Part shown: positions 5,787 to 63,036 of the stretch, in pieces | Layout: each line of letters opens with the position of its first letter | How positions within the stretch are numbered: position 1 is the first letter of the stretch | Assembly: GCA_023375675.1 (NCBI GenBank) | Contig: JALQBC010000044.1 | Span: 186,001-250,000 of the forward strand | Length of the DNA stretch: 64,000 nt | Source of the DNA: Cytospora piceicola | Taxonomy: Eukaryota > Ascomycota > Sordariomycetes > Diaporthales > Cytosporaceae | Reading direction: 5' to 3' | Notes under the pieces: model-generated | Seen by the model: only the letters and a program-made list of their open reading frames with translations | The model's database searches: none | What the model was told of the DNA's origin: nothing | Made by a program: the position numbers and the translations under genes

Positions 5787-5788
5787 TA

Positions 5789-26053: not shown

Positions 26054-27604
26054 ATGGTGAATATGACTCAGGCCCCGCAATCAAACCCACCAGCCCAGGG
26101 AGACACGGGAAACGAAGAACTGGAGAGTCGCAGAACAAAATGTATTACGGAAATTCTGTCCTATGGAATTGTGAAGATTATGCGGCGTTCGGTGTCTACG
26201 GAAAAAGCTTTCTTTTGCCGTTCTGACCTCAACAAGCTCTGGATCGAAAAGTTACCAGCCTCTGGATACCGACCCCTTGATGCTGTACTCTATCAACTGA
26301 GTAAGGACCAACGGAATATCGTATTGGAGAATCTGGTCCTCTTCATTTCTTTCTTGGTATTTGTAGACGTTTCTCCGCGTTGGTTCTCTACTTGTGGATC
26401 CAAATTGTTTGGGCAACAATGGCATCAAACAACCCAACTCCAATTCAGAGACGACGATGGGCCGGTATCTGAGGAACAGCTTCGTGAAATCGGACTTACT
26501 CCAACCCAGGCCGCACACTGGCAGGAGCAGTACATGTTCAGGCCAGCTAGTATAAGATTCGACCCCGACGAATGGAGACAAGAAGTTGACCCATGGCAGC
26601 CCTTGCCTTTCGAGCTGGTTCATCGAGACGATGCTGCAAGCTCCATGGCTCGTGTGGAAGACAGCGACTCGGCCAGATATTACAGTGAATATGGGACAGT
26701 ACAAGTAAGCGGCCAATAGATTCAAATTAAACTCATTACAGACGTCCTAAAACAACATGAAGCTATACAGAATCCCCGAGGAATGTGTGGTGATCGTCCA
26801 TCGCGGATCAGAAGAATGGATGCCAGTTAGTTGAGTAAATTCTAATAAACCAGTCATATACTTACTAACAATTGGAAGAAAACCTCTCCTTTGAGGATAA
26901 TCAAGTCTTTTCTGGCCAGTAAGCCTGCTTTAGAAGAGGCTAGAAACATGGATTTCCTGAAAGGAAGCCTAAACCAAAACCAATCCATTGCCATACACGA
27001 AGCCATAATCGAGAGGAAACAAGAAGACCACACCCGAATCAGCATCATCTTGCCATATGCTTCACTGGGCGATCTCTCGCAGTTTCTTGTGGATGGAACG
27101 TCCGACGTTACTACACCATCAACACAGTTCTATGACATCAGGGAAAAGTTTCCTCAAATCGATACAACCGGTTACGAACTCCATCGATCACTTCTGAAAC
27201 AGTCCGCCCAACTAGCTGATGCGTTGAAGTTTCTCCACGAAGGGTTCCGCACCGTTGCGGATGACTGGAAGGTCTTTTGTGCCCATATGGATTTGAAGCC
27301 AGCCAATATCATCATATTCGAATCAAATGACGGTGTCGTGGGGAAATGGAAACTCTGCGATTTTGGGATATCTGTCTTTTATGCTGAACAAAAAGGCCAG
27401 CGCGGAGAAGTTGTCTCCATCGGCGACTATTTCAACAAGTTTTTGAAGTCGACTCAACGCTCGCCAAGGCGGCCACCAGGCGCATTCCAGGCCCCGGAAG
27501 TCGAGTTTCCAGCCAACTTGGGCATGGGGGATATCGAAGAAGATCCACGAGCAAGCGATATATGGTCCTTCGGGGCAATATTTACGGAGGTCCTGGCACC
27601 TCGA
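26054..27604 (+). pseudogene. Ser/Thr protein kinase gene, 5' half, cut by a giant insertion
   Basis: Exons 26054-26704, 26763-26825 and 26879 to about 27600. About 220 N-terminal residues of the type common in fungal kinases precede the catalytic domain. They are followed by YSEYGTVQ (glycine-loop region), LRIIKSF (beta-3 with the ATP-binding Lys), LEEARNM (helix C Glu), HMDLKPANIII (catalytic loop Asp), LCDFGIS (Mg-binding DFG), QAPEVEFP (APE) and ASDIWSFGAIFTEVLA (DxWSxG). The frame then meets TAA at 27605-27607, at the edge of RIP-mutated DNA. The rest of the C-lobe reappears in the same orientation at 61142. Sequence up to the junction has normal CpA content and no stops. The first intron (26705-26762) needs an AAG acceptor; the alternative CAG acceptor breaks the frame. 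Left alone, this half would make a kinase lacking the last C-lobe helices. Confidence 0.85.
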
Positions 27605-27780
27605 TAACGTGAGGCGATAATTTCCGATTTTAGTAGGTTTTAACTCCTAAGACACTGTTTCGGGAGCAGATTCTCGAATTTAAAACCTGTTTCTAAAGCA
27701 AATTCGAGTATCTAAGATATATTTCTAAAATACATCTCGAAGTTAAGACCTGTTTCTAGAGTAATTTCGAGGTAAGACCC
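27603..27780 (+). repeat. left terminal inverted repeat and subterminal repeat array
   Basis: The outer part resembles the right end in reverse complement (best block 27635-27666, around ACTCCTAAGACACTGTTTC). It is followed by about four diverged copies of a ~32-bp unit with the pattern CTGTTTC...CTCGA...TAAGA. Confidence 0.78.
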
Positions 27781-28794
27781 TTTATTAACCCCTTCCTTCC
27801 CTTTAGGCTACGACTTCCTGTTAAAGTTAAGGTTCTGCAGCCTATATAGCCTTAACGCCCGCCTCGGTAATCGAGCCCGTTTTAAAGTTCTGCCGGGCGG
27901 CGTACTTACGTTAAACCTTTAGCTATATAAACTTACTTCCTTACTCTTTTATTTTCGATTTAATTCCTCTTTTTTATAACTAACTTTTTTAACCTTTTAG
28001 CCGTTAGCTTATATTAATAAGTACTAACTTAAAATTAAAAGTTAAAACTATAAAACAGATTTAAAAGTTAGATTAAAAATACCGTTTAAAAAAAGGAAGG
28101 CTAAGGTAAAGCTAAAGGCTCCGGCTAAGTTAAAAACCCCGGCTAAGCTAAAGGCCCCGGCCGAGCCTTTTACCTTATCTTACTATTTAAATAAGAAAAA
28201 GCTAAGTAATACTACCGCTTTAAGTAATAATAATAAGTAGCCCGGACTTAATACGTCTACTAATATCGTATTTAGTAATATATATAAAGCTTAAAAAACC
28301 GGAGCCGCTAATATTATTATAATTTAGTTTCCGTAAAACTATTTTAAATTAAACCGGGACCTAGAGATATTACCTACTTTCCCGGACTTAAGATAATTCC
28401 CGAAAATCGTTAATAAAATAACGTTTAAAGCTATCGTTAATACCTCGAGTATATTATAAAAGTATAAGCTTTTTATAAATTTCGGATTCTTACTTATATA
28501 TAAGATTTATACTAAAAAGGATAAAAGCGACCGTTTAATTTTAAATTAATAAAACCTAATACCGGACGTTTTTATTTTCCGGGAGAAATAACTTTAAAGC
28601 TTTTTTAAAGATAAAGTAAAAAGTAACTTTAACTTTATCAGCTATAAGTATAATAAAGTTACGTTATTCTACTCGCTTATAGCTATTAAAAAGAGTATAG
28701 AAATCGTTAGCGAAATCTTTAGTTTTAATAAGGTAAAATATATATATATATATTAAACTTATATCGGTAAGTAAGTAACCCCTTTCCTTTATAT

Positions 28795-29065
28795 CTGGTT
28801 AATATTAAATAGTATCGATAAACTTTAATAATTTTAATACTATTTAATACTAACGAACTTCGATAATCTTATATTATTTAGTATTAACGATTTAAATAAC
28901 TTAATACTATTTAGTATTAACAGACCTCGATAATCTTAATACTATTTAGTATTAATAAAACTTAAATAAACTTAATACTATTTAATATTAACAGACTTTA
29001 ATAAACTTAGTATTATTTAGTATTAACAGACCTCGATAATTTTAATACTATTTAATACTAACTAC
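28795..29065. repeat. cluster of the palindromic motif TTAATACTATTTAGTATTAA
   Basis: About seven imperfect copies, spaced roughly 35-40 bp apart, lie in AT-rich DNA. The arms TTAATACT and AGTATTAA can form a hairpin around ATTT. The same motif recurs in a smaller cluster at 32780-32910 and singly near 30890, 30935 and 50270. Confidence 0.75.
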
Positions 29066-29099
29066 TTATAAATAATACTAATAACCTTATAGTATATAC

Positions 29100-30800
29100 G
29101 TTTTACAGCCTTTTAATTAAAGCTAAACTATATAAGTTTTAGTTATACCTGTATACCTTAATAAACGTATACAGACAATATATCGAACTAGTTAAAGGGT
29201 TTTAAAACCCTAGCTTAAAACAGATTTATAAGTCGATACTTAATAACCCGAAATAACCGGTTTACTTAATTAGAAATAGTAACGTCGGAATACCTTAACT
29301 TAAGAAGATTAATATAAACGCGACTATAAATATAGCGATTTTATAATACCTTATTTATTACTTTATAGGTATTTACTTAAATACAGAAGGTATTAGGCGG
29401 TATAAACGTTATAAACCGAATAAAGAATTTCTATAAAGCTTCTCGTATAATAATTTATTTTACGGCTTTATATTATACTTAGTATATATCCGATAGCGGT
29501 ATACCTTTAAATCTACTACTATTAAGAAATCCGGTAGGTTAAACTCGAATAAAAAGGTTCCTAATAGTAAGAATACTATTTAAACCTATATATATACTAC
29601 CGTTATATAATATAAACGATTTATAAGTAATAACACCGAAAGTATCCCGGATAATATAGCCTTTTAGTCGGTTATAAATATATCCGCGGTATTCTGTTAA
29701 CTACGTAATAAAATAAAAAACGTTTTTATTAAAGCTTTAAAAAACGCCTATTAAAACCTTTAGCGTTATATAGGATTTTTAGTTAAAGCGTTTTAATATA
29801 ACCGGCTAAACTATAGCTATATAAAAAACTACTAGTAAAACTATAAAGCCGAAGTCTTTAACGCTATAGCTAATATTCCCTTTATAGACTATTAAACGGT
29901 ATTAGCTATAGTTAAAAAGATTTATACCTAAAGTCTTTTAAAAAAGCTATACGTTACGTTTATCCGGAATAAAGATATTTTTTAAAACTTTAAAATCTTA
30001 TTACCTAAAACTTTTAATATTAAGTAGTATATCGCCGGCCTCGATATAAACGCTATCGTACTTATTATAAGTATTAAAAAAAACGATAAAAAGGTTAATA
30101 AAGATAATAGCGGCGCTTTTATATAAAGTAAGTATTAAAACAGACTAAAATAATACTATATAATATTAAATCTTTTACCTTTTCGACTTTTAATTAATAT
30201 CGATTTTATAACCGTATTCGATAAACTAAATATATACGATAAAAAAGCCGAAGGTAACGCTAAATATTAAAACCTTTATATAAACCGGCGAAATAATAAG
30301 AATAAAAAGCCTTTAAACTTATATAATATTAAACTTAAAGAGTTTTAAGTTATCGGTAAGCCTTATTTCTTAGTTAGTACTTATTAGTATTAATATTAAC
30401 GTTTTCTATACTTTTTAGTACTAACTTACTTTAATATAGTTTATATACTAACTAGCTAATTAAATATATACTACTTACGACTTATAATAGATAACGCGAT
30501 ATATAACGTTTTACTTATTAACAAGGTCGGTATAAGTAAAACCCTTATCTTTTTAATAAAACGTAAGGTAGCTATTAATAATTACTTAACCGTTTTAGCC
30601 GAGCTAAACTTTATTAAAAATAAAAATACCGGAAAGTATATAAAGTTATATATACCTATAATACTTATACTACCTGCCGTTATTATTAAGTAGTACTTCG
30701 ATAAGATTTACCGGTTCTTTTTATTAAAGACCTTTTATATCCGGTTTTATTATAGTTCGAAAAGTAATATTAGCTATAACCCCGGTTTTTAATAAGCTGT
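29100..30800 (+). pseudogene. possible RIP-destroyed ORF (unrecognised)
   Basis: A plus-strand frame shows Lys/Asn/Tyr-rich protein-like stretches broken only by TAA/TAG. No domain is recognised. Because TGA cannot arise where TpG is depleted, the absence of TGA is weak evidence. Included as a possible gene remnant only. Confidence 0.25.
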
Positions 30801-33689
30801 AATAATAACCGATTAGCTTTATACCGAAATAAAGCTTACCGTTTAAAAGAAAAACATCTCGAAAGTAAAATTCAGGTTTTAAAGTTAATACTAAATAATA
30901 TTAATATTCTCTTTCTTATCGGTACTATTTAATATTAACTACTTTAGTTAACTACTAACAGTTAAATATAAAACAGAATATATATAAGATTTAGCTTTTC
31001 TCTTACTTTACTTTAGTATTCCGAATACTAAGAAAAACTTAAGGCTTTAGCTTCGTTAAAAAAAAAGGTAATCTGCTATTCGACTATAGCCTATAGAAAT
31101 ATAATATATAAAACTTAATTTAAAAGTTTAACGAAAAGAAAATAGCTTATATTTATAAGATAGTATTAGACGTATATAAGAATAAGTCCTCTTAGTATAA
31201 AGCAGATATAGTATATAAGCTAAACTTACTTTTTAACGAAAAAGAGGCAGATTTTAAGTTTCGCGTTTTAAAAAACCGAAAGGCTTATAACGCCGACCGT
31301 ACTAATAATAATATTAATAATAAGCTACCTAAATAAAACGACTAAGTTAACGATAATAATATAAAAGCTAAATACTAAGTTAGTCTATTTAATAAAAAGC
31401 TCGGAATCCTTATTAATATCTATAATAAACTACTCTTTATATAAATAAATACCGGTAAGCCTTTAATATTTATAAACGAAAAGATAAAAAAGGATAAACT
31501 TATAATACTTAAGTTTTTTAACTATTACTAAATAATATAGTTCCCGTTTAAGTTTTACTTTTAGTATATTATCTTTAATAAGTACTAAATAATATAAAAT
31601 CTTTATACCGAATAGTTTTAACTTATACGTATAATAATCTATATAGCCTACTAACTAAACTATAAAAATAAAAAAACTAGCCTAGCCTTTTTAGTTATAA
31701 TATCCGCTATACCCGTTATTAATAAAATTATAAACTACTGTAGTTTTACCTTTTTATTCTAATAGAATATAGACCTAAATAACGTAGCCTTCTTTAAGAA
31801 AAAGCCTACGATAAATATTAAAAACGGCGTTTTAAAGTTTCTGCCGGAAGCTATATTTTAAGAACAGAAAGCGACGCTTACCTACGCGTATATATATTAT
31901 AGTTAATAGTAGTAAGTATTATCTCCCGGCTTATAAGGTATACAGAATACCGGTAAAGACTATAACAGCCGAAATATCGTAAAGGTAATACTTTAATATA
32001 TCGGAATACGTTAAAGGATAAATACGATTATTTACCTCTTCGAATATATTAACAGTAAGCTTTAACTAGTTTACTTTTATAACGGTATCCTTTTATATAT
32101 AATAAAAATATATAAGCTAAAATACAGAATTAATAAATATCTTATAGATAATTATATAAATAACTACTTTTAAAATCTTACGTTAAGCGATAATAACATC
32201 GGCGTAGTTAAAAATAAAATTAAGCTACTTTTAAAAAAAGGCTAAGTCGAAATAGCTATTAATAACGGTAAAGAAGTAACGCTTTACTTAAACGCCGGTA
32301 TTCTTTATATACTAATAATCGTATCGATAAATATACTTAGTTATAACGTTATATTAAATAAAGATATTATAAGAAATATACCGGAAGAGGTTATTATAAA
32401 CGATTTTATCGAGTTTAGAATCTAGCTAGTTTAGGTAAAAGGCGGTAAAGGGAAGAAAAAGAGTACCCGATAAGCCGTTAAAGAAATAGCTAACTAAAGT
32501 AATAGCTTAATCTCCTTTAACGTAAAGTATATAAACGCTATCCTTTATAGTACCGGGGATTTAAGCTTATCGTACCTTTAGCTTTTTATATATAGATTTA
32601 ACTTATACGATTTTATCCTTACTAAGCGGAAAGCTGTCTTTAGCCGTGTTATCTATAAGTCGCTAATTAACTACTATATATTAAAGCTAGTTATTAAGTA
32701 AGCCGTTAAGTAAGAAAAGACCTTAGTTATAGTCGTTACTTCTTAAAAGTAACTATAAGTATAACTTCTTTTCTTATTAGTACTATTTAATACCGATAAC
32801 TTTTAATCTTATTCGTATTATTTAGTATTAATAACCTTTTCTCCGGTTAGTACTATTTAGTATTAACGGTTTTCTTTCTATTCGTACTATTTAGTACTAA
32901 TAACTTTTATATTATAAGCTAATTATTTAATAGCCTTTTAGTTACTATTTTAGAAAAAGCTTTTCTGTTAGTTTTATCGATTTACGCCGGTATAACCTTA
33001 TTAAAAAAGGCTATATATATTTTTAAGTTTAATAATAGTATATCTAATATTAACGTTTTAATATTAAACTAGTAGTATAGATCCGCCGGCTTAAACCTTT
33101 ACTATTATTATTATTATAATATTTAAGTTTAATATCTTTAAAACTTCGGTATTACTATATAGTTTTTCGAACGCTTTATCCGGGTTAACTAATATATAAA
33201 GGTAACGTAGGTTATACTATAAGTTAATAATACTATTTATAATTACCTCGAATATAAGATATATATAAAAAAGGTATAGATACTTATTATCGAGCTTATA
33301 TTCCCCGACTAGCTAAAAAAGTATATTAAGCTTAAAACCTTTATAGTATATAAAGTATTACGTATTATTTAAAGCTAGCCTTTTAACTATTATATTTAAA
33401 ATATCTATTACTTTAAGGTTATTAAAGACTTTAACTCGGTAGTTACCTGTAATATTATCGAGTTTTATAAGTAGCTCGGGCTATTATTACTAAGTATTTT
33501 AAAAAAAGAACCCTTTAAGTAAAACTTTTTAAAAAAGCTCGACGATAAGCTAAATACCTTTTTTAAAACGTAGCTTACCGGTAGTAACCTTAGCTATAAT
33601 TTTAGCTAAAAGGTTATAACCGAGCTTTTAGCTATAACGGTCGATAAAGCTAACGAAACCGTAAGCTAAGTAAATAATATATAAAAGGA

Positions 33690-34950
33690 AATAGCCGATA
33701 CGACCTTCGGTAATATAAAGAAAAAGAAAGTATCGGTATTAAAGCAGATCTTTAACAGTAATAGCCTTACGGCTAAACGGCGGAAGCGAAAAAAGGCTAA
33801 AAAGGCTAAAAAGGCTAAGAAAGCCGAAGAGGCTAAAGAGGCCGATAAGTCCGAGAAAGCCGATAAGTTTAAAAAGGCTTAAGAGTTCGAGTATTTAACC
33901 TTAATAAAATACAGGTAAAGATACGATTAAGTTAAGTAAACTAAATCTTATACTTTATAAAATAGCTAGACAGATAGTCGGAAGTAAAGGCCTAAAGACT
34001 TAATAGCTTTTTATATTTAAGCTTTACTTAATAAATAACCTACTTTCCCGAAACGTTTTTTTAATTAATTAGTATTTATTAATACTATTATTTACTACTT
34101 CCTTATACTTATTAATACTAACTTATTATCTATAACTTATTAAAGATAAGTTTTCGGATTTTTATAACTACTATTTTAAAGTATACTAATTAAGTAAATA
34201 ATTACGTTTATATAACTACAGAATAATATAACCTATACGACTTTAGCTGTCGAACTAGTAATCGAAATATTACTACCTATAATAGTTAGCCGACCTATAT
34301 TACCCCTTTTCTCTATTACTATAGTTTATAATATAGTATCTACCGAAACCTCTATAGTATAAAGAGTATATAAAAACAGGCCGGCTAAGTTAGTCTTAAC
34401 TAAAGGTACTAAAGCTTATACCTTCCGAAACTATTTCTGTAGTAAATTAAACAACGCCGAAGATATCTTAGTCTAGTTTATATATACTATATAAAATATA
34501 TACTTTAAGCTTAACAGCCTTACGTATACTTTAATAGACTTTAAGCTTAATAAAAAAGAGCGTTATATCTTAGCCTTCGAGGTTCGAGTAGTAAAGAAAG
34601 AGTAAAGCGTTTCGGAGTAAAAGCGTTTAACAAATAAAAAAGAAAGGCTTATAAAGGTTTTAAACCGTTAGCTTAAAGATAAAGACGTTAGTATATAAAG
34701 GAGTAAACAGTATATTTAAAACTAAAAAGTATAAGTCGAAAGTTAAAAACAACGTATAAACGAATATATATAGTTTATCTTTTAAGCCTTTATAAGGGTC
34801 GAGTTTTCGAACGTTTAAGCTAAGTAGGATATAGACGTTACCGAATAGGCTATTTTAAAGGGTAAAGTAAAGATTTAATAAGTCCGGAAAGCTATAAAAA
34901 ATTTAGTTAATATTTTAAAAAGTACGAAAGCCGCGAATTAAAAATAACTA
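33690..34950 (+). pseudogene. possible RIP-destroyed ORF with Lys/Ala/Glu-rich segment
   Basis: The stretch 33770-33890 encodes a strongly basic then mixed-charge run of KKAKKAKKAEEAKEADK type, likely helical or coiled-coil. It is followed after about 500 bp by other frames (FRNYFCSKLNNAEDIL near 34430) with TAA/TAG interruptions. The pieces are in different frames or exons. The function is unknown. Confidence 0.3.
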
Positions 34951-37397
34951 TACCTTTTTATTAACTTAACTAAAGGCTTATTAAACTACAGTATAAAAAG
35001 GTAAATATTCGCCGGTAAAAGGAACTTAAAACTTAAACTAAAAGGTAATATTTTATAAGGTATAAAGTAAGATAGATAATATTACTATTTATATTACTAC
35101 TTAAATAATAAATAGTATAAAATTAATCCTTATAAAAAGATAGGCTTTTAAAATATCTAAGTAATTTATTACTTTTCTTTATTATATCTATTATTACTAT
35201 TAATACTGTTATTACTATTATCGCCTTAATAAATATTAGCGATTATCTCTTTATTATAAAGTACTTAATATATCGTTATTATATTAATAATAGCGTTTAT
35301 TAGTCTATAGAGTAAAATACTTATCGACTTTATTAAGTTAACTAAGCGTTTTAAGTTAGCCGGATCGAACTTAGCCGTTATCTTTTTAATAGCCTTAAAA
35401 GGCCTACGGTCTGTTATAACTTACTTTTTTAATATACCGCCCTCGGCCGGTTTAATAACGGTATTAGGTTTTTATATTTAATATACCGGCGCTTAATCTT
35501 ATTAATATCGGAATATTTAATTATAAAAAAGACTTACTATATCGAACCGCGCCTTAATACCGAAAACCTTAAAGATATCGATAAAGTCGTCTATAAAAAG
35601 GTTTATACCCGTTAACTATCTTCTATTAATAATAGATAAACGTCGGAGCTTTATATCGAAAGGGCTAGCTTATAAAATAATTTCGACCTTATTAGTTATA
35701 GTCGAAAGCTAAGAAGTAGTATAAATTATAGCCGAAAGAATATCTTTTTTTTTAATATTAGGTATACTAACGCCGAAACGATCGTAAACGTAATCGACTA
35801 TACGGCTCTTTTAAAAGCTAGCGGTAAAGCGAATAAAAGCGAAGGTATTATTAAAACGGCTCTTAAAAACGCTTAGGTTATATATAGCCCGGTAGATAAC
35901 GTTATCGAAACGGCTATATTTATAGCTACCGGTAATAAAAGGGAGGTTATATACTTTATTCCTTTCCTTAAAGCTACGAAAGGACTTAAACTAATAGTTA
36001 TAATAATAGCTTAAAAGAGGTAAAGTAAAAGTATTTATTATAAAAGGTAAAATACCGGTAAAAAGTTAATATATAGCCGATAATAAAAAGCTTAAATTCT
36101 TCGGTAAATATATAACTAACAATATACTAAAGTATTATAGAATATTTTAAATAATAGTAGCTTAGTTTAAAGTAATAAAGAAACAGGCTTACTATTATAC
36201 TCGCTTTTAAAAGAATAAGCTTACCGCTTAAAAGCTTTATCTATAGTAAACTATTATAGTCGGAAACAGATATAAGTTATAGTTAATAAAGTTATATTAT
36301 ACTTTCTTATTTAATTAATACGCCGTATTAATAATACTTAAACCTTAAAAAATAAAAGCGAAACGTTATAAACTTAAAGATAACTCCTTTATAATTTAAA
36401 CGTTAAGGAAAATAAGGTTGTTTATAAGTATAATAGTACGGTAAAACAACTATAAGAACTAAACTATTACTTTTTCTATTTAAAAACTAACAGTTATACT
36501 ATTACTTTTAGCCGAAGAATACTATTCTTTAAAATAAAATAAAAATAAAAATAAAAAAGCTATTTAAAACTAAAATAAAAATAAAAAAACTACTTAAAAC
36601 TAACATTTAAACTAAAAAAAAAACTAATATAAAACTATAAAATAAAAACTATAAAATAAAAACTATAAAAAGAAATACTATTATTATAACTATTTAACCT
36701 AATATTACCGTACCGTTAAAGATAAGTAACTATTTAAGCCGCTACTCGGTATTACTTTTAAAAACTAAAACTTATCTCTTTTATAAGATTTAAAGATTTA
36801 TATCCTTAGCTTAAAATAAGTAATAAAACCGTATTACGTTTAACAATTACTACGTTAAGATAAAATATTATAATAATTTAAAAAGCAAAAGTACTAACGA
36901 GATAAGTAGTAACTAATACCTTATAAAGGGTTTTAAAGTTAGCTATTTAAAACTTCCTTATAAGTTCTATAGTAACTACCGGGATTGTAAAAAGTTTTAT
37001 AAAAGGGTATAGATAAAAAAAAGGGGTAAGACGTAGTAAGAGCTATACAGCTTTTAACGTATATTTTTAATAGCGACGGGTTTTATTAGTAATAGTATTT
37101 TAGTATATAAGTACTTAATATATAAATATTAAAGGGTTAGCTGCCTTTAATACCTTAATACTAAGTTTCTGCGATACGAAATAGTATACTTAAAAGCGGT
37201 CTTAAAGCAGATAAAGACGAGGATAGTATAGGTTATTATTATTATTCCGGTAGTATATTCGCGATTAGGACTATTTAAAACACCTAAGCCTTTATTAAGA
37301 AAGCTACTTAAAGCTAACCTTTTAAATAGCTCTTTTAATAAAGGCCTAAGAGAGGCAGCTAGACTTAATACCTTAATAAAGTATTTAAAGTAGGTAA

Positions 37398-37606
37398 TGT
37401 GACGGAACGGCGCGTGGGGCCAGGGGTCACCTGACCTGGCGCCTGTGCACAGACCAGGTGACCCACTAGGCCTCGCCGTACCTTAGTATTTAGACCTTTG
37501 GGAAGGGCCTTAGCTACGCTTAAGCCTTTCCCTTCCTCTTTAGCCAAAATGCTCATACTACATCAGAATTGCAGCTTTGCCTCTATCATTTTGATGCATC
37601 GTGACA
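37398..37606. mobile_element. 209-bp solo LTR, not RIPped
   Basis: The segment starts TGTGACGG and ends GTGACA, and is flanked by the 5-bp direct repeat GGTAA (37393-37397 and 37607-37611). TG...CA ends with a 5-bp duplication define an LTR. No second LTR, primer-binding site or internal region follows, so it is a solo LTR left by recombination. It is GC-richer than its surroundings and full of CpA/TpG (for example GGGGTCACCTGACC and GTGCACAG), so RIP did not touch it. Either it arrived after RIP, or it escaped by being shorter than the RIP detection length. Any short frame in it is not a gene. Confidence 0.88.
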
Positions 37607-43407: not shown

Positions 43408-43875
43408 GACTAAAAACCCCCTTAGTAATAACTACTATATTAAGACTAAAGACCTCTTTAATAATAGCTATTATATTAAGACTAAGGACTTCCTTAGTAA
43501 TAGCTATTACACCGAGACTAAAGACCTCTTTAATAATAGCCTTTACACTAAGACTAAAGACCTCTTTAATAACAGCCTTTATACTAAGACCGAGGACCTC
43601 CTTAATAATAGCCTTTATACTAAAACTAAAGACCTCTTTAGTAATAGCTACTATACTAAAACTAAAAACCTCCTTAGTAACAGCCTTTACACTAAGACTA
43701 AAGACCTCTTTAATAACAGCCTCTATACTAAGACCGAAAACCTCTTTAGTAATAGCCTTTACACTAAAACCGAAGACCTTTTTAATAACAGCCTTTATAT
43801 TAAAACCGAAGACCTTAGTAATAACCTTTATACCAAGACTAAAAACCCCTTTAATAACCTTTACTATAGCCTTTA
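43408..43875 (+). repeat. 36-bp minisatellite encoding a 12-residue repeat
   Basis: About 12-13 head-to-tail copies of a 36-bp unit. In one frame the consensus reads TKDLFNNSLYTK and is free of stops in nearly all copies. The last one or two copies are shortened. A period of three times twelve and a largely open frame suggest a former repeat-containing protein. Confidence 0.85.
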
Positions 43876-48664: not shown

Positions 48665-49160
48665 ATAGATTATTACCTTATTAGATCTGTTCCTCTGCTA
48701 AATCTGTTCCTTCGTTAAATCTATTTCTCTACTAGATCTGTTCCCTCGTTAAATCTGTTCCTCTACTAGATTTATTCCTTTATTAAATCTGTTCTCTTAC
48801 TGGATTTATTACCTTATTAGATCTGTTCCTTTACTAGATCTGTTACCTTATTAGATCTGTTACCTTACTAGATCTGTTACCCTACTAGATCTGTTACCTT
48901 ACTAAATCTATTACCTCGTTAGATCTGTTACCTCGTTAGATCTGTTACCTCGTTAGATCTGTTACCTTACTAGATCTGTTACCTCGTTAAATAATATCTG
49001 TTATATAATTAAGGGTATTACCGTATCCTGTTACCGTAGGTTCTGTTACTTCGTTAAGTCTGTCCCTTTATTAGATCTGTCCTTTAGATCTGTCCTTTAA
49101 ATCTGTTACCTAGATCTATTACCTAGATCTATCCCTTAGATCTGTCCTCTAGATCTGTTA
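48665..49160. repeat. 17-bp minisatellite (TTAGATCTGTTACCTCG)
   Basis: About 25-30 copies of a 17-bp unit with variants in the last five bases. Each copy keeps the palindrome AGATCT and a CTG in TpG-poor surroundings. Confidence 0.85.
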
Positions 49161-51470: not shown

Positions 51471-52207
51471 AAGAGTTACTTAACAGGTTACTATAAGGTT
51501 TCTTAACCTAGCTATTCTAAAGCTAGCTATTAAGCTACTACGTAATATCGGAAAAGTTTACCTTAAGTAATAGTTAGTAACGTGCCTTTTAAGACTTAAA
51601 TAATAAAGACAGACCTAAATACGTATCTCGATAAGATTTACTTTAATTAAAGTAAAATCCTACTCGTTTATTTACTCCCGGATCTTGTATTTAGTTATAT
51701 TTATAAAAGAAAGTAGCTCCGGCTCGAATAGGTTATTTTATAGTAGCTTAAATTCTTAAAGCGTAAAGAAAACTATAAGCTCTTCTTATCTTTTTTAATC
51801 TTCGATCGGGATAGCCTGTTTTTTAGCTTAGTCCTTAAGGTTATTCTACAGACCGCTACTTAATACGGATCTGTAATTTATTTAAACGGTTTACTATAAA
51901 AGGACGCGTCGCGATAAAGTTAGCTATATACTATCTACCGAGTCTATCGTGTTTATAAAAGGTAAAGTATATAGTATTTTAAGGCTAAGATCTAATAGTT
52001 TCGAAGGTAATATATATAGCTTAAGTAGGTAATAATAATTAAAAGGCTTAAAACTTAAGCTTAAAGCCGTTACTACGATTTCCTTTAGCTTAAAGCTATT
52101 ACTTAACGCCTTTCTGTTAATAGCCTTTAGCTTTTTATCGACTACTTAAGGCTATCTTAGTATTATCCCTCTTACTTTTATTAATATTATTATTAGCTAA
52201 GTTACTT

Positions 52208-52462
52208 TATAGCCTTCCGATATTTTAAGGTATAAAAGAGAGCGGTTTAAGACTTTTAAAAGTTTACTATAGCCTTTCGATATTTTAAAGTATAAAAGAG
52301 ACCGGTTTAAGGTTTTAGAGTTATTTCTATAAGCTACCGATATTATTAAAGTATAAAAGAGAGCGGTTTAAGACTTTTAAGAGTTTACTATAGCCTTCCG
52401 ATATTTTAAGGTATAAAAGAGACCGGTTTAAGATTTCGGAGTTATTTTTAAAGGCTACCGAT
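52208..52462. repeat. 60-62 bp tandem repeat with alternating A-B-A-B copies
   Basis: Four copies, each containing TATAAAAGAGASCGGTTTAA. Copies 1 and 3 share one tail and copies 2 and 4 another, so a ~121-bp dimer was duplicated. Confidence 0.82.
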
Positions 52463-52589
52463 ATACTTTAAGATCGTTTAAAGCTATATTAACAGCCTTA
52501 AGTAGCCGCTAAGTAGGTAACTTAAGTATACAGATTTAAAGACTTACCTCTTTTATACTAACTTTCTTAAAATTTTCAGATCTCTATAA

Positions 52590-52995
52590 ACCTTTTTTAT
52601 TAAACCTTATCTGTTAGACCTTAATTCTTAGACCTTATTTGCTAAACCTTCTTTACTAGACCTTATCTGTTAGACCTTATCCTTTAAACCTTATCTACTA
52701 GACCTTAATTCTTAGACCTTATCTGCTAAACTTTAATTCCTAGACCTTAATTCCTAAACCTTATCTGCTAGACTATATCTCTATAAACCTTATCTGCTAA
52801 ACTTTATCCCTTAAACCTTAATTCTTAGACCTTATCTGTTAGACCTTAATTCCTAGACCTTATCCTTTAAACCTTATCTGTTAAACCTTAATTCTTAGAC
52901 CTTAATTCCTAAACCTTATTTACTAGACTTTAATTCTTAGACCTTATCTGCTAGACTTTATCTTTTAAACCTTATCCTTTATACCTTAATTCCTA
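52590..52995. repeat. 14-bp minisatellite (ACCTTATCTGCTAG / ACCTTAATTCCTAG)
   Basis: About 28 copies of two interleaved 14-bp variants. The shared core is CTTA followed later by TAGAC or TAAAC. Confidence 0.82.
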
Positions 52996-55199
52996 GCTAC
53001 GTCTATAGGATAACAGAAACCGGATATTATAAGTAAGGTAAGCTTAAGACTATATACTGTTTCTTATCTTATTATTAATATAAATAATTCGAAAGATAAG
53101 ATATTGCTTTTAAAAGCTACTTCTACCGCTACCTCGGAAGCTATAAAAGGCTAGTAAACTATTAACAATCTCTATATTTATAATAAAGTAATATTAGTAG
53201 TAAGTTTAAACTCTTTAGATATCTTAATCTTTACCTCTATATTAACTAAATTTAAAGAAAGTCGACGTATAAAAGTAAGCCGCTACTATTACTACTACTA
53301 CTACCGTTATTATTACCGTTATCGCTAAACAGTCTTTTTATATCTAAAAAGATAATAAGCTAGCCGACAGCCCTTTATAGTCTTAATAGCAGACAGGAAT
53401 ATATATATTTAAAAACCTGCTATAGGTAATATATATACGCTACTTTAATAACGCCTTCCGGTTTATAGACCGGCGGGCTTAGCTTAACGATAATAAACTA
53501 AATAGGTTAGTTTAACTCGCTTAGTAAGGATATAATATTAAATATTTACTCCTCGAGGTAATCTTATTACTAATAGGCGAACTAAAAGATATTATCGCTT
53601 AGTTCGGCTAAGAAACTAAAGATAATATTAAGTCGGCCTTTATTCGTACTACGATTATAAGCTTATTATCTGTCGGCTTATACTAAGCTTTAATCGTTAC
53701 GTATAAAGGTAAGCTTTTATACTTTAATACGTCGGCTTTATAATATATATTTACTTTTTATATTTAAAAACTCTTCCTACTTGTTTTAACTTTAGCCGGT
53801 ATCGATACTTATTTCCTACCTACTACGATCGTCGAAGTACTTTAATAACTAAACGGGTAAGAGTATAGACTTTTTATTATAAAGATATAACGTAAGATCG
53901 TTTATAAAGGTAACTTAACGGCGGTTATAAGTTAAAGCGAAAGTATTAAAAAGGTCGTCGAGCTATAAAAAGCCGCGATTATCTAAAAGCTCGGCGATAT
54001 TAAAAACGAAAACAGGCCCGAGAAAGCGTTTAAGCCTTACGTTTAAAACGGCTATATAATTATCGCTAAAATATATAACGAATAGAAGGCTAGCGACTAA
54101 ATATTTTTAGTTAGTTTTAAAGATATTCTTACGTTTAAGTTAAAGGACTTTATATTTCGGAAAAATATTCGAGATAATAAACTTATACCCGGCCTTTTTA
54201 AAAAAAAGTATAATAAACGTTTTAAAGATATTGTAAACAGCTTCCGGTATAACTTTTATTTAATCCTGTTAGTTAAAATTATATTTATAAAAGCCGACGA
54301 TATTTTAAACTTATAGGCCTTTAACTTTTTAACTAGCTAAAACACCCTTTTCCCGGCTTCGCTATTTATACTATCTTTAAAAGCTTTTATATTATTTACT
54401 TATCGCTAAAAGGCCTTATACTATTATATAAAAGCTAATATAGCAGTTATAATAAGCTTTTTAAACTAAGTAAAGGGCTAAAATTAGTTTCTCCTCGACC
54501 TTATAATCGGCGTATTTTAGTAAAAAGTTTTGTAAGATTTCGAAACTCTTTAAGCTTAATGTCTTCCCGTTCTTTAATAGCTTACCGTAGCTGTAAAAAA
54601 CCTAATAATAACTCGACGTCTACTAAAGTTCTTCGAAATATATTAAGCTCGGTATAAGTAATAGGCTAAGTAAACGAACGAAAACCTTAAAATAGTACTT
54701 AAAACCGTTTCGATAAAGAAGAAAACACGAATTATTAAAGAAAAGCTTATAAAAGCTTAACCTCTACTTTATATAGATTACGGAAAAAAATCGGTCGATA
54801 ATATATCGACTTAAAAGGCGTCTCGGATCTAATAAGGCTGCCTAGCTATTTTTAAAAGCTATAGCCTCGGCGAATCGGAGTTTAAAACCTATATACTTTT
54901 CGATAAAACGTATATCTATCCCTTCTATATCTCTTACTACAGCTAACTACGCTCCCTTAGCTATACGATCGGCACTTTATATATTATATTAGTTTCCTCG
55001 CTTTTTTATATGTAATATAATAAAGCTATAACACGCTTCGACTTTTATAAGCCCGAACTAAGTATTTATTAAAAGCGGTTCTTCTTTTAGATTATTTATA
55101 ACGTTTTATAATAAATCGCTTAAGCCGTTTAAAAGGTTAGCTACCAGCGGCTAAATAAAAACTGCTACTTGTTAAACTTTATACTTAAAGTTTAGTAGT

Positions 55200-56290
55200 T
55201 AATTATAAACCGTTAAGGCTTCCCGATTATACTATTTAAGTATAGCCCTTTCTACTATATACCTGCTATATAAAGACCTCCGAACTCGGTAATATTCTCG
55301 GGGTACTAAAGCGAATTATTACCGGTAGAAAGTCCTATTATACACTTAAACCTATTCGATCCGGTAAAGAGCTTTTAAAATAAGTTTTATAACGTTACCT
55401 AAAATAGTAATATTACTAATAAAGTTATAGGTAAGTCGGATCTTTTATTTTAGCTAGTCTAGTTTACTTACTTATTACAGATCTTAACGAGTAGTCTGTT
55501 TTAAAAACTCGACCTTAAACTTAGCAGAAAGCGATAAGCTTCTCTTAAAGAATACCTGAATATAAAAGCCCTTAACTCTTCGTTTCTCGACCTCGATATA
55601 CCAGACCCTCTATACGTATATTTTATAAATAGTTAAGACTAGCTACTCTCTTTCTAATACCTGTACTAAGCTTACTTTACCTTTAACCTCGACCTTAACG
55701 CCGGTTAATACTAGTATTACCTTAACCGGTTTTATAGTAACTAAAGGTATAAGTATAATACTTACTAAAGATTATTCTCTAACTAGAAAACTTTAAAAGC
55801 TTATCGGGATATTAACTTTTATCTCGATACAGAAAGGGTTTTCGATTAAGCTTATAAGTTCTTTTAAAAATACCTCCGTTATAACTATATCGACTATACC
55901 GAGAAGCGAAAGAGATTCGGTATAAAACAGACCTTCGATCGATACTACTAAAGTTATATACCTTTAGAAAAGCGATCGCTTCCGACGATAGTTTATAAAT
56001 ACGGCTTTTTCTAAGCGAGTAAAATAAGTTATATTAACACGTATTAAACCTCCCGGTTCTATTAATAGTATATAAATAACTATAATAAGCCTAACTAAGG
56101 GCTATCGAAAACGTTCTAGTGCTCGAACTGTTATTTCGAGACTAATAATCGGTATTAATAGAAAGAGCATTAACGTTCAGAGATTTATAAAAAGGGGATA
56201 CTATACTCTCCTCTCTAAGGTAACTTTTAAAAGATCGATAAAGCTACTATTTAAAAGTAGAAGGCCGGACAGGTTTTAAAGCCTTTTTAG
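55200..56290 (+). pseudogene. RIP-destroyed ORF with a Cys/His zinc-finger-like end
   Basis: One plus-strand frame stays protein-like for more than 1 kb, with TAA/TAG at intervals and no TGA. It includes SFLDLDIPDPLYVYF, INFYLDTERVFD, YNYIDYTEKRKRFGIK and, near 56120-56180, CSNCYFETNNR followed by KEH, a C-x2-C...H pattern like the start of a C2H2 finger. This is the most coherent relic in the giant element. A DNA-binding or transposition protein is a guess. Confidence 0.4.
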
Positions 56291-56934
56291 TCGAAGGCAC
56301 TCTAAGATTCCTAGAATAACCGTAAGGCTATATAGGATCGCGGTCTGTAGAAAAGGAGCTAAAGCGATAAGTAGAAAGAAAAAACTTTTATATATTAAGC
56401 TTATAAATATAGCTTTCAGAAACTAAGTAATTATAATTAACATCTTAATACTATAGAACACGAATTTCGTAATCCTACCTTTATCTCGTTACTATAAAAG
56501 TATTGTTATTAGCTTTACGACTTTAAGATTAATATCCTTTACCGGTCGAAGAAGTATACTGTAAAATGTTATCTAACACTTAAGATCGAGCTATTAAACC
56601 TTATAAAAAAGGTTAAAAACCTTTCTAAAAAGCTTCGAAATATCTTTTCGAATAACGACGGTATTTTTACCGATCTAAAGGAATATATATATCTTAAATA
56701 CCTCGGTAGTTTTTAGTAGCTAAAAGACTTTCGAAAATATCGCTTAATAAGCAGCTATTATATAAACTAAGATACTTTTAAGCTAATTAACGATAACTTT
56801 TCGATCGTTTACGCTAAAGTATAAGTATATCTTAAAGGAGAAAGTTAACCTTTTACCGGAAACGATAGTTAAACTTTATAGCTATTACCTTAAAATAAAA
56901 CTTCCGGGAAAGGTAAAGCGGTTATCGTTATAAA

Positions 56935-57850: not shown

Positions 57851-57904
57851 TCTTAACTAACCTTAAGCGACTAAGTTATTTATTACTAACTAAGATACCT
57901 AAAG

Positions 57905-58275
57905 TAAGTTAGTATACTTAAGGCGAGTTAGTATACTTAAAGCGAGTTATAATACTTAAAGCGAGTTAAGGTGCTTAAAGCGAGTTAGGGTATTTAAAGC
58001 GAGTTAGTATACTTAAGGTAGAGTTAAGATACTTAAAGCGAGTTAAAATACTTAAAGCGAGTTAGTATACTTAAGGCGGGTTAGTATACTTAAAGCGAGT
58101 TAGTACGCTTAAGGTAGAGTTAGAATGCTTAAAGCGAGTTAAGATACTTAAAGCGAGTTATAATACTTAAGGTAGTTAGTATACTTAAGGCGAGCTAGAG
58201 TATTTAAAGTAGTTAATATACTTAAGGCGAGTTAAGGTACTTAAAGTAACTTAAGATACTTAAGGTAAGTTTTTA
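57905..58275. repeat. 19-bp minisatellite (AGTATACTTAAAGCGAGTT)
   Basis: About 18 copies. Variants affect the first six bases and AAAGC/AAGGC. Confidence 0.85.
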
Positions 58276-58664
58276 AATAGTTAATACTTAAGGTATAAAA
58301 GGGGCTACTAAAAGTATATAATTATATAATACAGCGCAGATAAGCTCTTTTATTTAAAAGGCCCCGGAAGCTATACTGTACTTATTTTAAGCTATCGTAC
58401 TTATTTTAAGCTATTATACTTATTTCTAATAAAGTAAAGTACGTACTCGTATATTTAATATACCAGGTATACTAACGTTTATACCGGCCTTACTACCTTT
58501 AAGGCCGGAGCTCTTTTTAAAAGCTTAATTACTTTATATAACGTATAATTAAATTACTTCTTATTATTAGTATGTTTTCGCTTTCTATTATTTTAATATA
58601 AATATATACCTAAGTACTTTTAAACATGTTTTTAAAGTTAAGCTTAAAAAACATCCTTATTACT

Positions 58665-58760: not shown

Positions 58761-60304
58761 TCGTATTACGCTTTCTGTCTATAGCTCGATTAAAGTAATT
58801 ATAAAACTAACTACTATATATAGATAAAATAGCCCTTACCTCCCCTACTAAGTTACTTATAGCCGCCTAAGCTATAAAGGCCGGTATATACGCTCTTTAA
58901 CTCGATTATAACCTTTATACTAACGACTTAACAGGTAAAAAAAAAAGCCGCGCCGGCGGTATTAAAAGTATATATATATTAACTTACTTTATTTTAGTTA
59001 CTACTATTTAAAAGCTATTACTAACTTTTATAATTAAAGAGCGCGGCTTTTAAACCTGCTTATAAAAGTAAGATCGGCGGCTTAAGCCCTCTTTTACGTA
59101 AGTTACGCCTCTTATTATTTATTATTTATATAAATTATTTATTACGTTTTATACTTACTCAAGTATTATTACTACCTTTTATATTCCTTACTTATTTCGA
59201 GTATTATTACTACCTTTTATAATCCCTATTTACTCGAGTATTATTACTACCTTTTATATTCTCTGCTTATCTCGAGTATTATCGCTTATATTACTAACTA
59301 ATATATAGCTACCTATATATACAGCCGTCTAACCGAACCCTTCCCTTCCCTCTCTCTTTCCGACGATAATAACGACGACAATAAAGACGATAACGATAAC
59401 AACCTCGGCTTACTTATAGCCGCCGCCGCTTACCGTTAGTCTGCTTATCTTTAAAAAGCTAAAAATAAGGCTAATAATAAAGCTAAAAAAAACCCTTTCG
59501 AGCCTAAAGTACTTAAAAGTAGCCTATACGCCGATTTATATATTAATTACGTAAGGTCGACTTTAGCTAGTCGAAGTATAAAATAGTACTTCGACGTTTT
59601 CGAAGGTAGTCTTTTAAGTATAAAAGTATATTACGCTTACTATACTTAAAGTAGCTATACTTATATTACTATTACTAGCTTAGCGAAACCGGCTTATCGC
59701 GTCCTTATAAACGTTTTAGCCGGTAAAGCTAAAGCTTAATAGGTTAAGGTATTTTATAGTTTTATTTATAAAGTCTTTAAAGATTTTACGTTAAGGTTTA
59801 CCTTTAATAAGGTAAACGCTTTAATAGATAAAGGTTATACTTAGCTATATATAGCTAAATACGCCTTTATAAACTCGCTTTTAAACTTAGTTTAGTAAAA
59901 CGCTTTCGTATAAGGTTTTTAGTTTAGTTTAAGTATTTAGTTTTACGCCGACGTATATACTTTATAAGGCTTTTTATTTATTTATTTATAGTTTACGCCG
60001 GTATATATATTTTTCGAGGTAAAATTATAAATTAAATATTACGTCGGCGTATACGCTTTCTTTAAGTATTTAACATCTCTTACTCTTTTTCCGTATATAT
60101 AATATCTAGTATTAAGGTAGTTAGTATTAAACGGTACTAACTTAAGGTTAGTTAAAATACTTGAAATTACTTAAGTTCTTAAGTAACTACTTTAGTACTT
60201 TAAACAGCTATAAAATAAGATATAGGCGATATAAGAATCGTAGCTAAAAGGTTAGTTATAAAGGGCTTAATAGGCGTAAAAGCAAGGTTATTATATAGGT
60301 AGTC

Positions 60305-60560
60305 ACGTGTTCTGTAGCGGACTGACCGTAAGAGGTATCGTAGCTATCGTAGATCTTCCGGGGCGGACCGACTGTAAAAGGCATCGTAGCTATCGTAGAT
60401 CTTCCGTAGCAGACCGACCGTAAGAGGCATTATAGCCTCCCGCATCGCCTTTCCTACTCGATATAACCTAAGCCGACCGTAAAAGACCGGCCGTAAAAGG
60501 TATCGTATATAGATTTTCCGGGGCAGACCGACCGTAAGATATACTAGAAACACTACCTAT
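60305..60560. repeat. ~50-bp tandem repeats (GATCTTCCG...GACCGACCGTAA)
   Basis: Five diverged copies share GACCGACCGTAAGAGG and TATCGTAGATCTTCCG. This part is less AT-rich than most of the element. Confidence 0.75.
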
Positions 60561-60639
60561 ACGGCTACGGTCAGTTAAACAGGGGACTATTAGCTAAGGA
60601 CTCGAAGGTATAATAAAAGCCGTAGCGGAAGCCGTAGCG

Positions 60640-60905
60640 GAAGCTAGACGATTAGACTCGAAGGCTAGGGGTCGAAATCGAGGGCGATATAGAGACAGAG
60701 AGATAGCTACGATCAGACTCGAAGGTCGACGGTCGAGGGCGACTTAAAGACAGATGGCCACGATCAGATTCGAAGGTCGAGGGTCGAGGGCGACATAGAG
60801 ACAGATAGCTACGATCAGATTCGAAGGTCGAGGGTCGAGGGCGACAGAGATAGCCACGATCAGATTCAAGATAGCCACGATCAGACTCGAAGGCTAGCCT
60901 CGAAG
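60640..60905. repeat. GACTCGAAGGTCGAGGGTCGA-family tandem repeats
   Basis: Five to six copies of a 50-70 bp unit contain ACGATCAGATTCGAAGGTCG and GGGCGACA. CpA appears here in CAG and also ACAT and CAC contexts, so RIP is weaker near this end. Confidence 0.78.
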
Positions 60906-60931
60906 GTCGAAGTAAACCTCACGATGTATAT

Positions 60932-61139
60932 ATCAGCTTTAAATACACTCTAAAAACATATACCAGACTCGAAGATATACTCTAAAAACATATATTATAC
61001 TCGAAAATGCACTCCAGAAATATGTATTATACTCGAAAATACACTCTAAAAACATATATCAGACTCGAGATACACTCCAGAAACAGTATCTCAGGAGTCA
61101 AGACCTGCCGAAAATAGAGAAAATTTACTCTCGCTTGAC
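60932..61139 (-). repeat. right subterminal repeat array and terminal inverted repeat
   Basis: Five copies of a ~32-bp unit (ATACACTCTAAAAACATATA, then AGACTCGA) are followed by GGAGTCAAGACCT and the junction near CTCTCGCTTGA. In reverse complement these align with the left-end array and repeat. Confidence 0.78.
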
Positions 61140-61141
61140 AG

Positions 61142-63036
61142 GGATATGCTTCTGGACGGTCAACATCTGTCAAGAAGTTTCGTCAGATGAGGACGCAGCG
61201 GACATCCGCCAGGCCCATCCCCGATGACTTCTTTTACACGTGGATACCGCCCAAAGACATACCGCCCAAAGACATATCCCAGACCTCATACTACGACTGC
61301 GTTTTACGGAGTGAGGTATCCGGCTGGCTAAATGAATTTGATACGGATCGGCCTCCGTTGTCACCGCCCGCTGCATGCCTCAAGTGCTGGGCCACTTGCG
61401 TCAAGAGCGTCCTCGAAGTACATCCTGAGAAAAGACCAAGAGCTGCAACACTCGATCAGTGGATTCTCAATCTCCAAAAGCACACCACCAAGTCCGGGAA
61501 GACTCAATGTATCACGACATTTCCGACCCGCCTATACGCCGAAGCCAGAAGTTCAGTATCGTCATTGGTTGGCAGTCTTCCCTCCTCGACATCTACGCGA
61601 AACGAGGGGACTCGCACCAGCAGTTCGAGTGAAAACCCGCAGCCACAAGGGCGTGTTCCTCGAGTTGTTTTCAACGATCCCTTCCCTCTTATAAATTCGC
61701 CTAGCTCACCCGGTTTGTCGGACCCTTCTCGGAGGTCAAGCACTGGGCAGTCAAGCCAGGTGATTAACTTCAACCTCACTTCTCCTGAGGTTGTTGACTA
61801 CGATCTGGATGGCGACAGTATGGCCTTCCTCGGAAAGAGCCATTTCCAAGTGTTCCGACTGTTCCCGAGGAAGCATTCAATGAATTTCCATGATCATGGA
61901 GCAGTTAATCTCGTTGAGAAGGACCAAAAGTGGAAAGGCATCAGTCTTTCGGGTGGCTATCTCGTTGTATGGGGAATCCATAGCAGTGTTCCAGTAGTAA
62001 GCCAGAATCCTCTTGTTTCTAAGAAGACCACCCCTAATGACTGCATGTAACAGCTTCGAGTTTACGATGTATCAGAGGATCCGGTGCAACTTCCAGGTTC
62101 CGGCAACGTCCCTTATTTCGATCCAAGAAAGCGCGTAGCAATATCAAGACAAGGATACATCGCCATGATCAATAACAACCTGATACATATTCTCAACGCG
62201 AGGTTTGTCTTACCCAAGGCAGAGAAATGGCCTGTTATAGCTGATTTGGGAATAGAGACCAGACCGTGTACCGAAGAATCGAGATGCCGAGACAGGGGAG
62301 GGTGAGGAAGTTTCTGGGGGTTTCGTTTGATGACTCCGGCTCGATTCTTTACGCATGGGGAAATCTGGACACCATCTACGGTGCTCTATTTGCGTACGAG
62401 TTCACGAGAGAAACCGAACCAGAGATCCCGGTCTTCGATGGAAAATACCAGGTTTGTAGAACTCCAGAGATCTCGCTCATAGCGCAGAGGCTGACCCTGG
62501 TTAAGAACGACTTCAACGGGCAGGACGTTGTCATTATGCCCTTTCCAGGAAATACAGAGTGCATCATTGCAGTAGATTCAAGGTATTTCATGGGATGCAT
62601 CGACCGCGATCGACGAGAATCCATACTTCACAGAGCCTCCACACAAAGCCGGCAGAGCCTAGTCGAGCGAGGCCTGACGCCACAGCACATCTTTGGACCA
62701 TTCGATGGGCCAGACACGATTGCAGCTTGCGTCTCCGATGACTCTCTCATCCTCGTCCAGAGCACCCGGCCTGGGCGTTTCTCGAGCAGCAAGAACTGGA
62801 CAGGCCGGATCTGCGAGCAACCACTCGGCCCGCACGAGATACCCGACCTGACAGCGCATAGGCCACTGGCGAGCTTGCGGCAGAGGCCTAAGGTAGACCC
62901 AAAGGCCGGTCTGAACATGACGGTGAAGGTGGGGGTCGTCCGGCTGAATGAGGCGGATGTTTTCATCGTCGTGTGTCATAAGGAAGGCAAAGTTGAGCTG
63001 GTGCCCCTCATGCAGGAGTCACAAGATCCTGGATAG
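61142..63036 (+). pseudogene. Ser/Thr protein kinase gene, 3' half (C-lobe plus beta-propeller-like domain)
   Basis: Exons run from about 61142 to 61996, then 62054-62202 and 62256-63036, all in phase. The first residues, GYASGRSTSVKKFRQMR, then PDDFFYTWIPPKD, VSGWLNEFDTD and SVLEVHPEKRPRAATLDQWI, are the end of a protein kinase C-lobe (helix G to helix I, with the conserved Arg of EKRP). They continue the 5' half at 26054-27604. A Ser-rich linker (about 61560-61750) follows, then some 380 residues of short beta-strand-like blocks: VVDYDLDGDSMAFLG, GISLSGGYLVVWG, FLGVSFDDSGSILYAWG and DDSLILVQS. That pattern resembles WD40 or related propellers and probably serves protein binding. A 15-bp direct duplication at 61244-61273 repeats PPKDI. 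No start codon or promoter of its own is evident. Confidence 0.85.

What the first reader, a model, noticed from the sequence alone, without database searches (positions are those of the whole stretch)
26054..63036. A protein kinase gene is split inside its catalytic domain by a ~33.5-kb insertion
The 5' part carries every kinase landmark through DxWSxG and stops at TAA at the edge of RIP DNA. The missing C-lobe helices with the EKRP motif, followed by a propeller-like region, resume in the same orientation and in an open frame 33.5 kb away. Both halves retain intact splice sites and no stops.
Basis: partly seen in the sequence, partly recalled or inferred. Interest (0 to 1): 0.9.

Follow-up and report, generated by a model that had tools for sequence, protein, structure and literature searches.

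The report
Giant mobile element splits kinase gene
A fungal protein kinase gene has been cut cleanly in two by one member of a family of about 33.5-kilobase jumping DNA elements, since scrambled by the fungus's own genome defence, and some sister copies of the element have cut other genes in the same way.

Summary
The kinase gene is open up to codon GCA (window 27596-27598) and resumes at codon TAT (61145), with plausible introns and no stop. Between them lies one discrete element, 27599-61143 (33,545 bp), with defined ends and subterminal inverted repeats. An interior 2-kb probe finds 18 copies in this genome. I located both ends for 15 of these 18: 12 of 15 are 33.2-34.0 kb. One sister copy, the only one read in full, is collinear throughout. 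In a 3.1-kb segment of 7 copies, differences are 9,824 transitions and 57 transversions over 21 pairs, so the copies were near-identical before RIP. Insertion follows a YA dinucleotide, with at most one A added. Three other copies split an acyl-CoA dehydrogenase, a DUF2855 gene and an FAD monooxygenase, by Pfam. DUF3435 (Starship captain) and Helitron_like_N were not found in the element. No known transposase was recognised. A second family with similar ends follows the same target rule in three pairs. Best reading: a burst of a giant transposable element of unrecognised type. The paper library failed throughout, so novelty is unchecked.

The parts
26054..26704 (+). kinase gene, left half, exon 1 (inferred model)
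   Evidence: open frame, donor GTAAGC at 26705
26763..26825 (+). kinase gene, left half, exon 2 (inferred model)
   Evidence: inferred introns 26705-26762 and 26826-26878, the second containing TACTAAC-like sequence
26879..27598 (+). kinase gene, left half, exon 3: catalytic landmarks through DIWSFG, cut after EVLA
   Evidence: Pfam Pkinase E 2.6e-10, profile 69-192 of 263; only two weak paralogue matches elsewhere
27597..27598 (+). target dinucleotide CA (YA at 18 of 18 paired sites)
27599..61143 (+). giant element, 33,545 bp, starts CCTCGATAACG, ends CTTGACAGGG
   Evidence: ends shared by paired copies; collinear sister copy on C16; 18 interior matches including this one
27621..27771 (+). 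left subterminal inverted repeat arm
   Evidence: 112 of 158 columns identical to the reverse complement of the right arm
60968..61122 (-). right subterminal inverted repeat arm, within an array of 32-bp repeats (60909-61100)
29100..34000 (+). RIP-broken coding trace(s), period-3 signal, frame changes near 30.85 and 32.8 kb; SNF2-helicase-like by eye only
   Evidence: period-3 composition, read in two copies; the frame at 32.9-33.4 kb is matched by an un-RIP'd relic elsewhere, E 2.5e-6, 1.1e-8; the SNF2 name failed its tests
53300..54300 (+). second RIP-broken coding trace, unnamed
   Evidence: period-3 composition, two-copy reading by eye
61144..61144 (+). extra A beside the right end: element-borne base or one-base duplication of the target A
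   Evidence: found at 23 of 23 right ends examined; the search pattern included it, and none of the 23 failed the pattern
61145..61996 (+). kinase gene, right half, first exon part, from TAT; contains VHPEKRP
   Evidence: codon phase 0, no stop; one DNA match in the genome
62054..62202 (+). kinase gene, right half, next exon (inferred model)
62256..63036 (+). kinase gene, right half, last exon with stop (inferred model)

Best explanation
The kinase gene was split by transposition of one copy of a giant (about 33.5-kb) high-copy element. Shown: discrete ends, a collinear copy elsewhere, insertion after YA with at most one added A, near-identity of copies before RIP, and splitting of other genes by sister copies. 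Inferred: a recombinase recognises the ends and subterminal repeats and joins them at YA; copies spread in a short time; RIP then mutated every copy seen and probably silenced the family. The left reading frame now ends two codons inside the element, so the kinase lacks the C-lobe from about helix F onward and is predicted inactive. The right half has lost its promoter and start.
For: Left and right termini pair in the same orientation at 33,208-34,008 bp in 12 of 15 type-A pairs; the other three are 35.5, 36.1 and 44.4 kb. The C16 copy is collinear end to end, 84% identical, 4,992 transitions against 237 transversions in 32,694 aligned bases. In a 3.1-kb segment of 7 of 18 copies: 9,824 transitions, 57 transversions over 21 pairs. 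Target: Y at -2 in 20 of 20 and A at -1 in 19 of 20 left ends examined; the base after the right-hand A is never A in 23 right ends. The kinase halves meet codon to codon. Other splits with the same Pfam family on both sides: DUF2855 2-273 then 277-333 of 335 (the second below its curated cut-off, E 3.3e-5); Acyl-CoA_dh_1 5-58 then 61-148 of 150; FAD_binding_3 3-182 then 245-348 of 349, with 58 unmatched residues at the seam for 62 unmatched positions.
Against: No transposase or recombinase gene was recognised in the element. The right half of the kinase has no family hit and no significant alignment to two paralogues. No empty allele, homologue or transcript could be examined. Only one other copy was read in full.
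Confidence: 0.88

Rival explanations
1. The block is an AT-rich isochore of several nested, unrelated RIP'd transposons that built up in the gene by successive insertions.
For: RIP signature along nearly the whole block; internal minisatellites; eleven indels of 48-214 bp between two copies.
Against: The whole 33.4 kb is collinear in a second copy; an interior probe has 18 copies; the ends pair at a near-fixed distance in 12 of 15.
Confidence: 0.04
2. The element is a RIP'd Starship, moved by a DUF3435 tyrosine recombinase.
For: Giant size, fungal host and very short target duplication fit what I recall of Starships. A coding signal lies on the + strand near the left end. The one DUF3435 relic in the genome (C51:181911-182709) lies about 38 kb from a type-B left end on the same strand, so it might lie inside a type-B element; I did not resolve this.
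Against: A DUF3435 search up to E 10 found none in any type-A copy but did find that RIP'd relic. The relic's DNA has one match in the genome, itself, so it is not a general part of either family. High copy number and subterminal repeat arrays are, from recall, unusual for Starships.
Confidence: 0.12
3. Left and right halves are two separate genes that happen to flank the element.
For: The right half has no kinase-family hit, its similarity to two paralogous C-lobes is no better than shuffled, and it has an in-frame ATG at its codon 15 (61187).
Against: The right half is open exactly to the element end, in the codon phase of the left half: 250 codons back and 301 forward, against a median of 118 in total at 3,000 random sites of this window. 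Three other copies show the same with one Pfam family on both sides.
Confidence: 0.04
4. The element works as a giant mobile intron that is spliced out, sparing the gene.
For: The type-A left end carries GTRAGG and the right end ACAG, which resemble splice sites.
Against: My own reckoning from the sequence: splicing there would leave 13 nt and, in the kinase, an in-frame TAA. The GTRAGG is missing from the type-B left ends seen. A 33-kb intron is far outside fungal sizes (recalled).
Confidence: 0.01

Closest known systems
Starship giant elements of filamentous fungi (recalled, no paper could be read)
   Same: Tens of kilobases, fungal, mobile, very short target duplication.
   Different: No DUF3435 captain found in any type-A copy; 18 copies of one element; subterminal inverted repeat arrays; YA target.
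Helitrons (recalled)
   Same: Insertion next to a fixed A without a duplication longer than one base.
   Different: No Helitron_like_N in the element, although two RIP'd ones were found elsewhere; subterminal inverted repeats; ends do not read TC...CTRR.
Mavericks/Polintons (recalled)
   Same: 15-40 kb with inverted repeats.
   Different: No 5-6-bp duplication; no polymerase B, integrase or packaging domain hits in the frames scanned.
RIP'd AT-rich blocks of ascomycete genomes (recalled)
   Same: Composition and CpA depletion.
   Different: One discrete element with defined ends and a collinear copy, not a mosaic.

Membership tests
Starship | DUF3435 tyrosine recombinase (captain) near the 5' end (recalled) | tested here: not met
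   PF11917 search of the genome up to E 10: two adjacent matches on C51, none in the type-A copies. RIP damage weakens but does not void this, since the C51 match is itself RIP'd. Whether the C51 relic lies in a type-B element was not resolved.
Starship | short direct repeats at a preferred short target (recalled) | tested here: inconclusive
   Preferred target YA, at most one A repeated
Helitron | Rep/helicase protein with Helitron_like_N | tested here: not met
   PF14214 matches only C14:1048290 and C57:602280, outside the 18 paired elements
Helitron | no target duplication, insertion between A and T (recalled) | tested here: inconclusive
   Left flank A in 19 of 20; after the right-hand A comes T in 10, C in 8, G in 5 of 23
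Maverick/Polinton | 5-6-bp target duplication (recalled) | tested here: not met
   Flanks of 18 pairs share at most one base at the seam
Maverick/Polinton | polymerase B, retroviral-type integrase, packaging ATPase genes (recalled) | tested here: inconclusive
   No such Pfam match in frames read with X at stops; RIP limits sensitivity
DNA transposon with terminal inverted repeats (DDE type) | terminal inverted repeats with a target duplication of two or more bases (recalled) | tested here: not met
   Subterminal inverted repeats are present, but no duplication longer than one base
Protein kinase (split gene) | Pkinase domain | tested here: met
   Left half only, profile 69-192 of 263; right half no hit

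The most novel reading that the evidence does not exclude
A new superfamily of giant fungal transposable elements: two related families (one about 33.5 kb with 18 copies; one of about 45 kb or more with some 26 probe sites) share end sequences, use a YA target with at most one base duplicated, carry subterminal repeat arrays, and move by an enzyme that is neither DUF3435 nor a Helitron Rep. It bursts to tens of copies, splits genes, and is extinguished by RIP.
Probability: 0.35. Interest if true: 0.8.

Novelty: new variant of a known kind. Interest (0 to 1): 0.62.

Why it matters
As I recall the field, giant mobile elements are mostly described at low copy number. Here one genome holds 18 copies of a 33.5-kb element that were near-identical before RIP (shown on 7 in one segment), plus a related larger family, with at least four copies inside recognisable genes. 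That gives gene-level evidence of how such elements damage a genome and a natural test of how RIP ends an invasion. If the enzyme proves unfamiliar, it adds a class of large-cargo eukaryotic transposition.

Tried and rejected
Giant intron: rejected, 13-nt remainder and an in-frame TAA, by my own reckoning. Nested junk: rejected by the collinear copy. Starship and Helitron: domain searches negative in the element. SNF2 helicase: suggested by eye at 30.4-33.4 kb, but not supported by Pfam, PDB profile searches, the PF00176 genome search, which scored only 40 candidates, or local HMMs against frames of five loci with SNF2 matches; I do not claim it. Solved-structure searches with each kinase half: none. 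Fold of the right-half exon: mean pLDDT 39.5, unusable. Preference for genes: 6 of 17 pairs (three of the 17 are type B; the C26 pair, nested against another element, was dropped) have at least 250 jointly open codons, against 10% of 3,000 random sites; 9 of 17 against 32% at 150 codons; the control is a single 21-kb stretch of this window. Suggestive only.
Full report
Check of the observation. The window is contig C41:186001-250000 of a 43.6-Mb assembly in 99 contigs. The left half of the kinase gene reads from ATG 26054 through two short introns to codon GCA at 27596-27598, 478 codons without a stop. The right half reads from TAT at 61145 through two short introns to a stop at 63034-63036 (the intron limits are my inference, no RNA was available). 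Pfam Pkinase matches the left half at profile positions 69-192 of 263. Neither half has a close second copy: one DNA match for the right half, only two weak paralogue matches for the left (E 3.0e-5 and 8.2e-5) and two chance-level ones for the right (E 0.33 and 0.69). The right half has no Pfam match even at E 10, and its alignment to two distant paralogues is no better than shuffled, so its identity as the C-lobe rests on its frame, its position and the VHPEKRP motif. The 'propeller' was not confirmed; a single-sequence model was too poor to use. RIP indices change sharply at the left junction; the last part of the element at the right is only weakly RIP-like.

What the insert is. The left end (27590-27960) gives 43 matches and the right end (60290-61138) 165 matched pieces in the genome; in each search only 40 candidates were scored. 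Matches pair up in the same orientation. The ends show a shared left end CCTCGATAACG and right end CTTGACAGGG with few variants, and inverted subterminal repeats, 112 of 158 columns identical between left and right arms. I located both ends for 18 pairs: 15 of type A (as in the window) and 3 of a second type, B, told by a different left-end variant. Type-A lengths run from 33,208 to 44,400 bp, 12 of 15 at 33,208-34,008; the window copy is 33,545 bp. A 2-kb interior probe has 18 full or nearly full matches, the window and 17 others at 83-86% identity, plus four short ones. Of these 18 copies, three (C38, C26 near 320 kb, C1 near 1.85 Mb) were not paired by me. The C16 copy, the only other one read in full, is collinear with the window copy.

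Age and state. C41 and C16 differ by 4,992 transitions and 237 transversions in 32,694 aligned bases; 117 of the 237 lie at 54147-56846, 34 at 51897-53696, and only 30 in the 24 kb from 28047 to 51896. In a 3.1-kb segment of 7 of 18 copies, 21 comparisons give 9,824 transitions and 57 transversions, and six of the 21 pairs have no transversion. The copies were nearly identical before RIP, so the spread was a burst. In a 160-codon piece, each of the 18 copies carries 11-15 stop codons, so no intact copy was seen. Among variable sites, CpT and CpG contexts are affected as well as CpA.

How it inserts. I examined 20 left and 23 right ends. The two bases left of the element are Y in 20 of 20 and A in 19 of 20. 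At the right a constant A (part of the search pattern; none of the 23 failed it) is followed by T, C or G, never A. In the kinase and in the acyl-CoA dehydrogenase the reading frame shows that nothing of the target was lost; one A is extra. The one left end not in A, a type-B end at C23:248447 flanked by TG, has 35.1 kb away a right end still followed by A. If those two ends belong together, the A is borne by the element and no base is duplicated; that is one case, with pairing uncertain. The three type-B pairs follow the YA rule, so both types plausibly use one kind of enzyme.

Other split genes. I printed the flanking open frames of eight pairs and scanned five with Pfam. On C7 a DUF2855 gene, on C5 an acyl-CoA dehydrogenase and on C79 an FAD monooxygenase have their two parts on either side of a type-A copy (profile positions 2-273 and 277-333; 5-58 and 61-148; 3-182 and 245-348). 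On C14 a type-B element cuts off a weak sugar-transferase match at the junction (below cut-off, E 8e-4), the other side matching nothing. On C44 both sides were scanned and matched nothing, though 423 codons are jointly open; C14a (255 jointly open) was not scanned. With the kinase, 4 of 15 type-A pairs are split genes with family evidence on at least one half. Six of the 14 type-A pairs tested (C26 left out) had no jointly open frame of 150 codons or more (C21, C23, C16, C57, C1, C11), so there is no evidence that every copy splits a gene.

Coding content. Period-3 signals occur at 28.9-34 kb and at several other places. The frame at 32.9-33.4 kb is real: an un-RIP'd, truncated relic at C22:72517-72669 matches it (E 2.5e-6; 1.1e-8 in a local search among unrelated and shuffled frames). 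I read SNF2-like motifs there by eye, but every test failed. Pfam scans covered 28.0-61.14 kb in six frames, except two minus-strand frames of about 47.2-48.2 kb, and not 27.6-28.0 kb; the five matches listed were all below their curated cut-offs. DUF3435 and Helitron_like_N exist elsewhere in RIP'd form and were found there, but not in the type-A element. The DUF3435 relic on C51 lies about 38 kb from a type-B left end on the same strand. I did not settle whether it is inside that element, but its DNA occurs once in the genome, whereas the type-B probe has 26 matches of 500 bp or more, its own included, with 40 of 97 candidates scored. The three type-B pairs measure 44.8, 48.9 and 61.6 kb; in the longest, C90, the probe matches 10 kb further in than expected, so it may hold another insertion or be two elements.

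Verdict. The finding is right and understated. A protein kinase gene was split by one copy of a giant, discrete, high-copy element of unrecognised type, and at least three sister copies did the same to other genes. What moves it is unknown. Statements about Starships, Helitrons, Polintons and fungal intron sizes are from recall; the paper library failed at every attempt, so I make no claim that the element is unpublished.

Noticed in passing
window 37391-37604: About 214 bp, GC-rich and not RIP'd, present in this copy but absent from the C16 copy, flanked by GGTAAT on both sides: probably a small element that inserted after RIP.
   Followed up: partly
G000 C47, C16, C23, C90, C64, C22, C14 and others: A second family (type B) with similar ends: 26 places match one left-interior probe over 500 bp or more, its own included, 40 of 97 candidates scored; three paired copies measure 44.8, 48.9 and 61.6 kb.
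   Followed up: partly
G000:C26:347966-348098 (L010): Two element left ends abut head to head and share TA, as if one element had used the very edge of another as its target.
   Followed up: no
G000:C51:181911-182709 (L055, L056): A RIP'd DUF3435 captain relic, one copy in the genome; it lies about 38 kb from a type-B left end on the same strand, and whether it belongs to a Starship relic or to that element is open.
   Followed up: partly
window 54147-56846: Holds 117 of the 237 transversions between the window and C16 copies, as if this part had a different history or exchanged cargo.
   Followed up: no
G000:C23:248447 and about 213346 (L019, L075): A type-B left end flanked by TG rather than YA, with a right end 35.1 kb away still followed by A: a hint that the A belongs to the element.
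   Followed up: partly
window 43307-43846, 48639-49026, 52496-53043, 57868-58286: Minisatellite arrays of 36-, 17-, 14- and 19-bp units inside the element.
   Followed up: no
window 2001-6000: Another RIP-like block, GC 37-43%, composite index 1.0-2.0.
   Followed up: no
G000:C22:72517-72669 (L069): An un-RIP'd truncated relic of an element gene beside a simple-repeat array.
   Followed up: partly
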